From an uncultured Kiloniellales bacterium (GTDB taxonomy: Bacteria > Pseudomonadota > Alphaproteobacteria > Kiloniellales > JAKSDN01): a stretch of 51,620 bases of DNA. The stretch is from positions 1-51,620 of the forward strand of contig CAMYKD010000043.1 of NCBI GenBank assembly GCA_947258885.1, read 5' to 3'. The number at the start of each line of letters is the position of its first letter. Position 1 is the stretch's first letter. The notes beneath the pieces are model-generated. The model was not told the DNA's origin. It searched no databases and worked only from the letters and a program-made list of their open reading frames with translations. A program made the position numbers and the translations under genes. Positions 44,398-51,370 of the stretch are shown piece by piece.

Positions 44398-45270
44398 TCA
44401 GCATTTCGCCGCGATGCCGGCCAAGGCGCGACGGGGCGGGTGCGACGGCACGGTGAGATAGCGCGCCATTTCGCCGAGAAGGGCGTCGAAATCAAGCGGC
44501 TTGCGGAGGTAGGCGACCGCGCCCCGCCTGCCCAACATCTCGCGCCTCAGCGCATGGTCCGGCTTGCCATCCACCGTCACACCCGTCAGGACGATAACCG
44601 GAATGTGTCTGGTCTCGGGATCCTCCTTGAGATCGACGAGCAACCGCTCTCCGGTGACCTCCGGCATCTTCTGGTCGGTGATGATGAGATCCGGCTTTTC
44701 CTTCTTCGCCAATAGCTTGCCTAATTTTCCGCTGGCCGATCTGATGACATCGAAGCCGAGCGCTCCGAGGCGAATCATCAAGGCCCTCGTGATCTGCGGA
44801 TCGTCGTCGACGACGAGGATCTTGGGCGGCGCAAGGACTCCGCCGGTCTCGGCCGCCGCGTCGTCCCGTGCTCGCGGCCGATCCGCGGGCGGAGCCTCCA
44901 CTTCCAGGAGGTCGCAAATCATCGGCTCGATGCCGGCCCAAACCTCGAGGCCCTTGTGGACATAGCGTGCACCCAGCGCCGCGATACGGCGGAGCGTATC
45001 CTCGTCCGACCTGCCGGTCAGGACTATCACCGGCACCTGTTTGACCTGTGGATCCCGCGCGATCTTTTCACAAACGCTGAGCCCGTCGGCCCCGGGCAGT
45101 GTCAAGTCAAGTACGAGCAAATCCGGCGGATTCTTGACCATGAGAATCAGGCACTCCAGCCCGTCGGAGGCGGTTCGGACCTCGAGGCCGAGGTCCTGGC
45201 AGCGGAGCCTCAGGGCTTGGACGAACTTGGGGTCGTCGTCCACGATCAGAACGGTACGATGGCCTGCCAT
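44398..45270 (-). CDS. tandem receiver-domain response regulator
   Basis: 290 aa with two complete CheY-like receivers and no output domain. REC1 (residues 6-122) has DDD at 11-13, phosphoacceptor D55 (LVLDLTLPG) and K106; REC2 (about 150-270) has DDD at 155-157, D199 (IITDQKMPE) and K257. A ~28-residue acidic linker joins them. It starts 4 bp after the upstream receiver gene, so they are cotranscribed. Probably a phosphate hub between the nearby kinases and an unknown target elsewhere. Confidence 0.92.
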   Translation of the reverse strand: MAGHRTVLIVDDDPKFVQALRLRCQDLGLEVRTASDGLECLILMVKNPPDLLVLDLTLPGADGLSVCEKIARDPQVKQVPVIVLTGRSDEDTLRRIAALGARYVHKGLEVWAGIEPMICDLLEVEAPPADRPRARDDAAAETGGVLAPPKILVVDDDPQITRALMIRLGALGFDVIRSASGKLGKLLAKKEKPDLIITDQKMPEVTGERLLVDLKEDPETRHIPVIVLTGVTVDGKPDHALRREMLGRRGAVAYLRKPLDFDALLGEMARYLTVPSHPPRRALAGIAAKC

Positions 45271-45274
45271 GGCT

Positions 45275-50162: not shown

Positions 50163-51370
50163 TGTGGAGACACGGGAATTATGGCGCCGTCTTCGTCGTA
50201 GCGACTGAGACGGAAGTCGGTGGCATCGAGGGCGTCGTGGCGCTCGGGCGTGAAGGGCGGGTCGTAATTCCGCATCAATCCCTCGTGACGATCAAGCGAT
50301 TCCAGGGCCGAGCGGACCTTTTCGCGGTCGGTCGTCCCGGCTTTTTCGATCGCCTTCTTCAGCAGGTGGACCAAGTCGTAGGCATGGGCGGTTCCGACGG
50401 GCGACTTGACCGCCGCCTTGGACCTGCAATCCTCGAACTTGGCGCAATAGGCCGAGTAGACCCGTTCCGCCCGGTCGGAGAACGGCGGCTCCGCGAAGGA
50501 GAAGGTCTGCAGAAACGTCAGGTCGATGCTCGCGATTTCGCGGGCCACCTGGCTGTGGAAGTCGCCGCCCGTAATGCCCCAGTGGGAGATGATCGGCAGC
50601 CGGCCATCCGCGGATCTCTGCGCCATGTTTCGCACCGCGACGAGGCCATCGACGGGATTGGCGACCAGCATGACGACGTCCGCCCCCGCCGCGGCCAGTG
50701 CCGCGATCTGGTCCGATACATCCTGTTCGCCGGTGTTGAACCACTGAACGCCCGCCGGCCGCATGCCGAGTCGCCTCAGCGCGTCGGTCATGGCCTTTGC
50801 GTTGGACCGGCCCCAGCCGGTTCGCCACAGCAGCAGCCCGGGTCGGCGAAATCCCCTTTTCAGGGCCGCATCGATCAGGAAGCCGCCGGCGTACTCGTCG
50901 CGCACCGACACGCGGAACACATAGTTCGGGTCGTAATGACTGGCCACGATCGGGGTACCCGCCGCCCAGGGGCCCAGGTAGACGATCTTGTGCCGGTGGA
51001 TGGCCTCGAGCTCGGCGAGGGCGACGGGAGTATGGATGCCTCCGACCACGGCGACCAGGTTTTCGATCCGGGCGAGGTCTTCGATGTTGTCGATGCCGCG
51101 GGCCGGGTTGCCGCGGTGATCGCGGACAACCAGCTCCAGCGGCCGGCCGAGGACGCCTCCGGCCCCATTGACCTCGTCCATGGCCAGCACGAGGCCGCGC
51201 CGGATCGCCTCGCCTGACTGTGCCGCGCCCGAGGACATGTCGGCGTCGAGTCCGATGACGATCCGCTCGCTGCCGGCCGTCGCCGTGGCGATACCTGGGG
51301 CAGGCCATGGGGCGAAGACGGCGAGACACGCCAGAGCTGCCGAAAAAGGCGAACACCTGAGGATCTTCAC
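50159..51370 (-). CDS. periplasmic substrate-binding protein, branched-chain amino acid/amide type
   Basis: 403 aa from a GTG (51370) with GGAG six bases upstream. A signal peptide (about residues 1-32, basic start then FSAALACLAVFAPWP) leads into a Peripla_BP_6 fold: VIGLDADMSSGAAQSGEAIR, then NPARGIDNIEDLA and GGIHTPVALAELEAI. No permease or ATPase genes accompany it. Its stop overlaps the start of the sensor kinase gene, so the two are made together, which points to ligand sensing rather than transport. The ligand is unknown. Confidence 0.88.
   Translation of the reverse strand: MKILRCSPFSAALACLAVFAPWPAPGIATATAGSERIVIGLDADMSSGAAQSGEAIRRGLVLAMDEVNGAGGVLGRPLELVVRDHRGNPARGIDNIEDLARIENLVAVVGGIHTPVALAELEAIHRHKIVYLGPWAAGTPIVASHYDPNYVFRVSVRDEYAGGFLIDAALKRGFRRPGLLLWRTGWGRSNAKAMTDALRRLGMRPAGVQWFNTGEQDVSDQIAALAAAGADVVMLVANPVDGLVAVRNMAQRSADGRLPIISHWGITGGDFHSQVAREIASIDLTFLQTFSFAEPPFSDRAERVYSAYCAKFEDCRSKAAVKSPVGTAHAYDLVHLLKKAIEKAGTTDREKVRSALESLDRHEGLMRNYDPPFTPERHDALDATDFRLSRYDEDGAIIPVSPQ

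What the first reader, a model, noticed from the sequence alone, without database searches (positions are those of the whole stretch)
44398..51370. Signalling island with five receivers, two kinases and no output domain
Six co-oriented genes encode a binding protein, a membrane kinase, an Rcp1-type regulator, a receiver-kinase, a single receiver and a tandem receiver. None has a DNA-binding, cyclase or chemotaxis output domain that looks active. The island must act through protein interactions or distant partners, possibly as a multi-step relay or phosphate sink with built-in branching.
Basis: partly seen in the sequence, partly recalled or inferred. Interest (0 to 1): 0.6.

Follow-up and report, generated by a model that had tools for sequence, protein, structure and literature searches.

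The report
Mosaic signalling island with rewired kinase
A 7-kb block of six signalling genes, absent at this spot in two close relatives, joins parts that other bacteria keep in separate circuits; its central kinase carries a receiver domain where its closest relative, encoded next to a stress-sensing complex, has only a short lead.

Summary
In detail: six minus-strand genes at 44398-51370 encode a binding protein (A), a membrane kinase (B), an Rcp1-type receiver (C), a receiver-kinase (D), a single receiver (E) and a tandem receiver (F). Both kinases and all five receivers keep their key motifs, and Pfam names no output domain. The set lies in a 7.2-kb low-GC block between xth and a rhomboid gene; two congeners have the empty site. 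The block is a mosaic, not an ancient unit. A precedes a related sensor gene in 6 of 7 other genomes that have A. B-C-D(receiver) matches a recurring HK-Rcp1-receiver cassette. D(kinase)-E-F was found in one other genome, directly behind a complete RsbR-S-T-X stressosome set. D is a chimera with a clean joint near residues 129-133. D's unnamed C-terminus is predicted to be a degenerate GGDEF domain without the catalytic motif but with an RxxD in I-site register, so it may bind c-di-GMP. Likely path: ligand, A, B, then C (side branch) and the D receiver, then D kinase, then E and F. Mosaic origin is well supported; phosphoryl flow and c-di-GMP binding are inferred. New variant of a known kind.

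The parts
44198..51432 (.). Inserted block (island) between xth and the rhomboid gene; absent at this site in two congeners
   Evidence: blastn against G001 and G002: 93-95% identity up to 44197 and again from 51433, with 9 bp between the two matches in each relative; block GC 64.2% against mean 68.1% (SD 0.9%, minimum 66.0%) for equal-sized windows of the rest
50159..51370 (-). Gene A: periplasmic binding protein (Peripla_BP_6)
   Evidence: Pfam E 1.1e-45; 8 of 78 genomes, own included, have a match at E 1e-50
47994..50162 (-). Gene B: membrane histidine kinase, Cache-HAMP-PAS-HisKA-HATPase
   Evidence: Pfam (dCache_1 only weak); sensor fold best Z 17.1 to DctB
49404..50054 (-). Periplasmic tandem-Cache sensor domain of B (predicted)
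   Evidence: AF2 model pLDDT 79.8 from 6 sequences
47543..47992 (-). Gene C: Rcp1-type single receiver
   Evidence: phmmer to RcpA 7.4e-33 and Rcp1 1.6e-28
45835..47379 (-). Gene D: chimeric receiver-kinase
47035..47361 (-). D receiver domain, related to receivers of HK-Rcp1-REC-output cassettes
   Evidence: 64% identity to the receiver of the G040 REC-GGDEF-EAL protein
46984..46998 (-). Joint in D (residues 129-133) between cassette-type receiver and stressosome-linked kinase
   Evidence: alignment to the G012 kinase in one ungapped block from residue 129 to 515, and to G040 over residues 7-133
46243..46914 (-). D HisKA-HATPase core
   Evidence: pairs with G012 D at 100/100
45838..46227 (-). 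D C-terminal domain, predicted degenerate GGDEF fold
   Evidence: AF2 pLDDT 81.1 from 2 sequences; PelD and GGDEF domains are the top structural matches, Z up to 9.9
46078..46089 (-). RASD (residues 432-435), in register with the RxxD I-site of GGDEF domains; RQNAW stands where GGDEF would be
45275..45691 (-). Gene E: single receiver
   Evidence: 55% identical to G012 E
44398..45270 (-). Gene F: tandem receiver
   Evidence: 49% and 42% identical to two G012 tandem receivers

Best explanation
A horizontally acquired, recombined signalling cassette. A periplasmic ligand bound by A is read by the Cache sensor of B (as in LuxP/LuxQ-type pairs; recalled). B phosphorylates two alternative receivers, C (a stand-alone branch or sink) and the receiver at the front of D. 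The D receiver, joined to a kinase whose nearest relative sits behind a stressosome, sets the activity of D. D then phosphorylates E and one or both receivers of F, which act by protein contact. The degenerate GGDEF end of D may tune the kinase by binding c-di-GMP. Shown: gene order, domains, motifs, empty site in relatives, mosaic ancestry, joint in D. Predicted: GGDEF fold of the tail. Inferred: every phosphotransfer step, control of B by A, c-di-GMP binding, the order of events that made D, targets of E and F.
For: Motifs present in 5 of 5 receivers and 2 of 2 kinases. Collinear HK-Rcp1-REC-X rows at 6 of 19 classified loci, X being GGDEF-EAL (2) or HK (4). D-E-F'-F-HK directly behind RsbR-S-T-X in G012. 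D kinase pairs with G012 D at 100/100, apart from six REC-HK proteins. D receiver matches cassette receivers at up to 64%. Clean joint. A followed directly by a sensor/kinase gene in 6 of 7 other genomes with A, with a B-like sensor part in 6 of those 6. Tandem-Cache fold. Predicted GGDEF fold with RxxD in 2 of 2 sequences. Parallel: BphP2/3, LhfD (in vitro phosphate sink), LhfE (REC-HK), LhfA in R. palustris.
Against: No phosphotransfer, binding or expression data. The D-E-F link to a stressosome rests on one genome. The GGDEF call for the tail has no sequence support (Pfam none at E 10; hhalign probability 1.5%); no Foldseek match is below E 0.001; the AF2 alignment had two rows and three of five models scored 37-38 pLDDT. 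RxxD could be kept for structural reasons. In the Lhf parallel, deleting LhfD did not disrupt the low-light response and how BphP2/P3 act on LhfE is unknown. The 163-nt and 143-nt gaps allow separate transcription of A-C, D and E-F. The G012 kinase has only a 24-residue lead before the aligned part, so the receiver may simply have been added.
Confidence: 0.5

Rival explanations
1. Phosphorelay reading: D works mainly as a phosphotransferase between B/C and E/F rather than as an independent kinase, and F is the end of a multi-step relay.
For: In a distant relative (G794) an F-like tandem receiver lies beside a hybrid kinase-REC, a lone receiver and a short HisKA-like protein in which Pfam reports no HATPase. 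Two receiver layers separate B from E/F.
Against: D keeps the N, G1 and G2 ATP-binding motifs, and no Hpt family is reported in the island.
Confidence: 0.2
2. Phosphate sink and insulation: C and F mainly drain phosphate from B and D, and the true outputs are among the other receivers of the genome.
For: Single and tandem receivers without outputs; LhfD is described, from in vitro data, as a sink for phosphate from BphP2/P3; 90 receiver matches in the genome.
Against: D, E and F homologues are also neighbours in G012 in the same order, which suggests a dedicated step rather than a passive sink.
Confidence: 0.2
3. Non-functional passenger: an imported mosaic that has not been wired into the host.
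For: Absent from the site in two congeners, low GC, parts from different contexts.
Against: All six frames open, motifs kept, tight gene overlaps.
Confidence: 0.1

Closest known systems
R. palustris Lhf system: BphP2/BphP3 - LhfD (Rpa3017) - LhfE (Rpa3018, REC-HK) - LhfA
   Same: Sensor kinases, a response regulator described as a phosphate sink and a REC-HK encoded together; LhfE is placed downstream of the first kinases (passages seen; that LhfD is of the Rcp1 type is recalled).
   Different: There the regulator LhfA, with a receiver and (recalled) an HTH domain, is encoded next door; here a single and a tandem receiver. LhfE is redox-sensitive through a cysteine; here the kinase has a predicted degenerate GGDEF end. 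Input here is a binding protein, not a phytochrome.
Stressosome RsbRSTX modules with downstream two-component genes (PMC9237108)
   Same: The D kinase, E and F homologues of G012 sit directly behind RsbR-S-T-X; that paper infers phosphorelay-type downstream modules from domain organisation (section read).
   Different: The island has no such module: the G012 RsbX finds no match in this genome at E 1e-25, and the only STAS match is one short ORF on another contig. A receiver stands where the G012 kinase has a 24-residue lead. The G012 RsbX-type protein also has an N-terminal HATPase domain, unlike the single-domain RsbX of that paper.
PelD and other degenerate GGDEF c-di-GMP receptors
   Same: Predicted fold, no GGDEF motif, RxxD in I-site register (PelD structures with c-di-GMP are listed, binding through its I-site is recalled).
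   Different: Here the domain is the tail of a histidine kinase; binding untested; no Pfam match.
LuxP/LuxQ-type binding protein and kinase pairs
   Same: Binding protein gene overlapping a kinase gene with a tandem-Cache sensor; V. cholerae LuxQ is among the structural matches (rank 47).
   Different: The closest folds are the sensors of DctB and sporulation kinase D; contact between A and B is untested; ligand unknown.

Membership tests
HK - Rcp1-type RR - REC-HK cassette (Lhf-like) | Rcp1-type single receiver next to the kinase | tested here: met
   C best matches RcpA/Rcp1; 1 nt from B
HK - Rcp1-type RR - REC-HK cassette (Lhf-like) | Third gene with a receiver heading an output or kinase | tested here: met
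   D; same collinear order at 6 of 19 classified loci
HK - Rcp1-type RR - REC-HK cassette (Lhf-like) | D kinase core of the same lineage as the REC-HK proteins of the order | tested here: not met
   D kinase pairs with G012 D, apart from six REC-HK proteins, four of them in full cassettes
HK - Rcp1-type RR - REC-HK cassette (Lhf-like) | Phosphotransfer from kinase to the single receiver | not testable with these tools
   needs biochemistry
Stressosome downstream module | RsbR, RsbS, RsbT, RsbX encoded alongside | tested here: not met
   none among the six genes; one lone STAS ORF elsewhere; no match to the G012 RsbX query at E 1e-25
Stressosome downstream module | Kinase, receiver and tandem receiver homologous to a set behind RsbRSTX | tested here: met
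   56%, 55% and 49% identity to G012
GGDEF diguanylate cyclase | GGDEF catalytic motif | tested here: not met
   RQNAW in its place in the (weak) profile alignment; no Pfam match
PelD-like degenerate GGDEF c-di-GMP receptor | GGDEF-type fold | tested here: met
   predicted model only; PelD Z 9.9, GGDEF domains about 8-9, no Foldseek E below 0.001
PelD-like degenerate GGDEF c-di-GMP receptor | RxxD I-site | tested here: inconclusive
   RxxD present in both sequences but only two sequences and a weak alignment
PelD-like degenerate GGDEF c-di-GMP receptor | c-di-GMP binding | not testable with these tools
   needs a binding assay
Binding-protein-coupled (LuxPQ-type) kinase | Binding protein and kinase encoded together, tandem-Cache sensor | tested here: met
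Binding-protein-coupled (LuxPQ-type) kinase | Binding protein contacts the sensor domain | not testable with these tools
   needs biochemistry

The most novel reading that the evidence does not exclude
A natural rewiring: a stressosome-controlled output kinase with its receivers has been cut from its stressosome and placed under a ligand-sensing two-component cascade by fitting a receiver to its front (in place of a short lead), while keeping a c-di-GMP-responsive pseudo-GGDEF tail, so that one kinase integrates an external ligand and c-di-GMP and writes onto a tandem receiver.
Probability: 0.3. Interest if true: 0.68.

Novelty: new variant of a known kind. Interest (0 to 1): 0.5.

Why it matters
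It looks like a single-joint natural example of input domains being exchanged or added across a helical linker, as proposed on general grounds for stress phosphatases, histidine kinases and cyclases (PMC12143880, passages). Relatives of both parents are in hand: the stressosome-linked kinase of G012 and the HK-Rcp1-REC-GGDEF-EAL cassette of G040. That makes input rewiring, receiver specificity and possible c-di-GMP control of a kinase testable with six small genes.

Tried and rejected
An ancient conserved island: rejected; no second genome with the set was found (C and E not sought alone) and the site is empty in two congeners. Active cyclase at the end of D: rejected, motif absent. D kinase as an ordinary REC-HK of the order: rejected by tree and scores. 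Copies of D on plasmids: none at E 1e-50 in that collection. The one genome-contig scan, made with F, kept 80 of 495 hits, generic receivers at 22-44% identity, and was not used. A PDB search with the D-tail profile gave one chance-level match, E 0.94. A link of G012 RsbT to D through an RsbU_N domain: Pfam lists none in the G012 kinase, so coupling there rests on gene order alone. Other RSTX loci in the order: the G012 RsbX query matched only G012 among 61 genomes at E 1e-25. Of 23 non-self places, 21 were fetched; G058 and G052:C14 were not. Of the 21, L160 and L163 gave no classified row. Domain labels there come from phmmer against my own reference domains; four of the loci were also checked with Pfam (L108; L151, L159, L167). 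The receiver-tree rows were chosen by likeness to the D receiver, so that tree only separates D's receiver from C, E and F. Searches with B, D, F and the G012 kinase scored only the best candidates in each genome, so weak relatives may be missed. Papers: passages of PMC12143880, PMC4976288 and PMC6879726; passages and one section of PMC9237108; all others as search listings only. I saw no description of this arrangement in the searches, which cover one open-access library only.

Full report
WHAT IS THERE. The window carries six minus-strand genes at 44398-51370. A is a binding protein (Peripla_BP_6; nearest solved structures are annotated as putative Leu/Ile/Val-binding proteins). B is a membrane kinase with HAMP, PAS, HisKA and HATPase and a weak dCache_1 match; its predicted sensor fold is a tandem Cache domain, best Z 17.1 to DctB. 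C is an Rcp1-type receiver. D is receiver-HisKA-HATPase plus an unnamed tail. E is a single receiver and F two receivers. The acidic pair, phosphorylatable Asp, Thr/Ser and Lys are present in 5 of 5 receivers, and H, N, G1 and G2 motifs in 2 of 2 kinases.

AN INSERTED BLOCK. In two draft genomes of the same genus, xth is followed directly by another gene, a rhomboid by Pfam in G001. blastn shows the window matching both at 93-95% up to 44197 and again from 51433, with only 9 bp between the matches in the relatives. Genes 57-67% identical to the G001 rhomboid also follow xth directly in G003 and G005, and after one small gene in G004. The block is 64.2% GC; equal-sized windows of the rest have mean 68.1%, SD 0.9%, minimum 66.0%. 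The simplest reading is acquisition in this lineage. Counting the own genome, F matched 3 of 78 (own, G012, and a partial match in G027; E 1e-30), B 2 of 78 (own and a partial match in G040; E 1e-100), D 2 of 61 of the order (own, G012; E 1e-80), and the D tail 1 of 385 of a class sample (own; E 1e-8). The G012 kinase as query matched 1 of 398 of a phylum sample (own; E 1e-60), and a tandem-receiver profile 2 of 398 (own, G794; E 1e-50). G012 gave no row, so presumably it was not drawn.

THREE SOURCES. (1) A matched 8 of 78 genomes, own included. In 6 of the 7 others it is followed directly by a sensor/kinase gene (G007, G037, G052, G016; G048, G053). The sensor part resembles that of B in all six: 29-39% identity in the five aligned, and a clear score above shuffles for the sixth, G053. 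The downstream parts differ: hybrid kinases with two receivers in G052 and G048, PAS domains and no HisKA match in G007, cut by the contig end in G037. In G034 A precedes a gene that reads like a permease (recalled, untested). (2) The receiver of D has matches at E 1e-22 in 17 of 61 genomes, own included. Of 21 non-self loci taken, 19 could be classified: REC-GGDEF-EAL 12, REC-EAL 1, REC-HK 6. Six of the 19 have a B-type kinase, Rcp1-type receiver(s) and the REC gene in one collinear row: G040 and G005 with GGDEF-EAL, and G037, G053, G055 and G004 with a kinase. The B kinase core pairs with that of G040 at 99/99. (3) The D kinase with its tail, E and F have relatives together in one other genome found, G012: kinase 56%, single receiver 55%, tandem receivers 49% and 42%, then a further kinase. 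Directly upstream lie RsbR (RsbRD_N-PAS-PAS-STAS), RsbS (STAS), an RsbT-type ATPase and an RsbX-type HATPase-SpoIIE protein (the Rsb names are my reading of the domains), and an IS240-type transposase gene about 0.5 kb upstream of RsbR.

D IS A CHIMERA. D aligns in one ungapped block to the G012 kinase from residue 129 to 515, and to the G040 REC-GGDEF-EAL protein over residues 7 to 133; the receiver part has no meaningful match to the G012 N-terminus, score 22. In a kinase tree D pairs with G012 D at 100/100 and 65% identity over 238 columns, apart from six REC-HK proteins; the tree warns of long branches. In the receiver tree, whose rows were picked by likeness, the nearest row to the D receiver is G040. 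The G012 kinase has only 24 residues before the shared part, so a receiver was either exchanged for that lead or added; which state is older is not settled. Pfam lists no RsbU_N domain in the G012 kinase, so its control by RsbT is inferred from gene order.

THE TAIL OF D. Pfam lists nothing even at E 10. The AF2 model from two sequences has pLDDT 81; the other four models score 71, 38, 37 and 37. Foldseek's best matches are PelD and GGDEF domains, none below E 0.001. VIA-align gives PelD Z 9.9 and many GGDEF domains Z 8-9; unrelated models often reach 7-8, so the margin is moderate, but nearly all the listed rows are GGDEF or PelD. A profile alignment with ten GGDEF domains from the fetched loci is not significant (probability 1.5%), but it puts R432-x-x-D435 in register with the RxxD present in 10 of 10 of those domains and RQNAW where they have GGDEF. 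RxxD is kept in both known tails. I read the tail as a degenerate GGDEF domain, dead as an enzyme and possibly a c-di-GMP receptor.

HOW IT PROBABLY WORKS. Ligand binding by A changes B. B phosphorylates C and the D receiver. C competes or drains. The D receiver switches the D kinase, perhaps also tuned by c-di-GMP at its tail. D phosphorylates E and F, whose targets are unknown proteins. The closest tested system I saw is the R. palustris Lhf pathway: BphP2/P3, a receiver LhfD thought from in vitro data to be a sink, and a REC-HK LhfE needed together with LhfA. There deletion of lhfD had no effect on the low-light response, and how BphP2/P3 act on LhfE is open (passages). Phosphorelays downstream of RsbRSTX have been inferred from domain organisation (section read), and exchange of input domains across coiled-coil linkers has been proposed (passages). 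The present case combines these.

A FURTHER RELATIVE. In G794, same class but another order, an F-like tandem receiver lies with a hybrid kinase, a lone receiver, a short HisKA-like protein without a recognised ATPase, and a kinase with an HK_sensor_dom_bact domain. This supports F as a relay component and is the basis of the first rival.

VERDICT. The island is a mosaic of known kinds of parts, probably acquired by this lineage. The new points are a receiver fitted to a stressosome-linked kinase and that kinase's predicted pseudo-GGDEF tail.

Noticed in passing
L005 9995-10849 (G012): G012 has two tandem-receiver genes in a row; in the one nearer E the second receiver has VTP where the others have K-P, so it may have lost the conserved lysine.
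   Followed up: partly
L005 16706-17305 (G012): An IS240-type transposase gene lies about 0.5 kb upstream of the stressosome and D-E-F set, which may bear on its mobility.
   Followed up: partly
L101 5478-7949 (G007): The sensor protein paired with the binding protein has several PAS domains and a weak Cache match but no HisKA or HATPase match.
   Followed up: no
L172 10465-11181 (G794): A 238-aa HisKA-like protein without a recognised HATPase, next to receivers and a tandem receiver; it may be a phosphotransferase of the ChpT kind (label recalled).
   Followed up: partly
L150 6221-8824 (G005): A REC-REC-REC-GGDEF-EAL protein in an HK-Rcp1 cassette: three receivers in a row on one output.
   Followed up: no
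L109 (G000:C5:41070-41372): The only STAS match in the window's genome is a lone 110-aa open frame.
   Followed up: no
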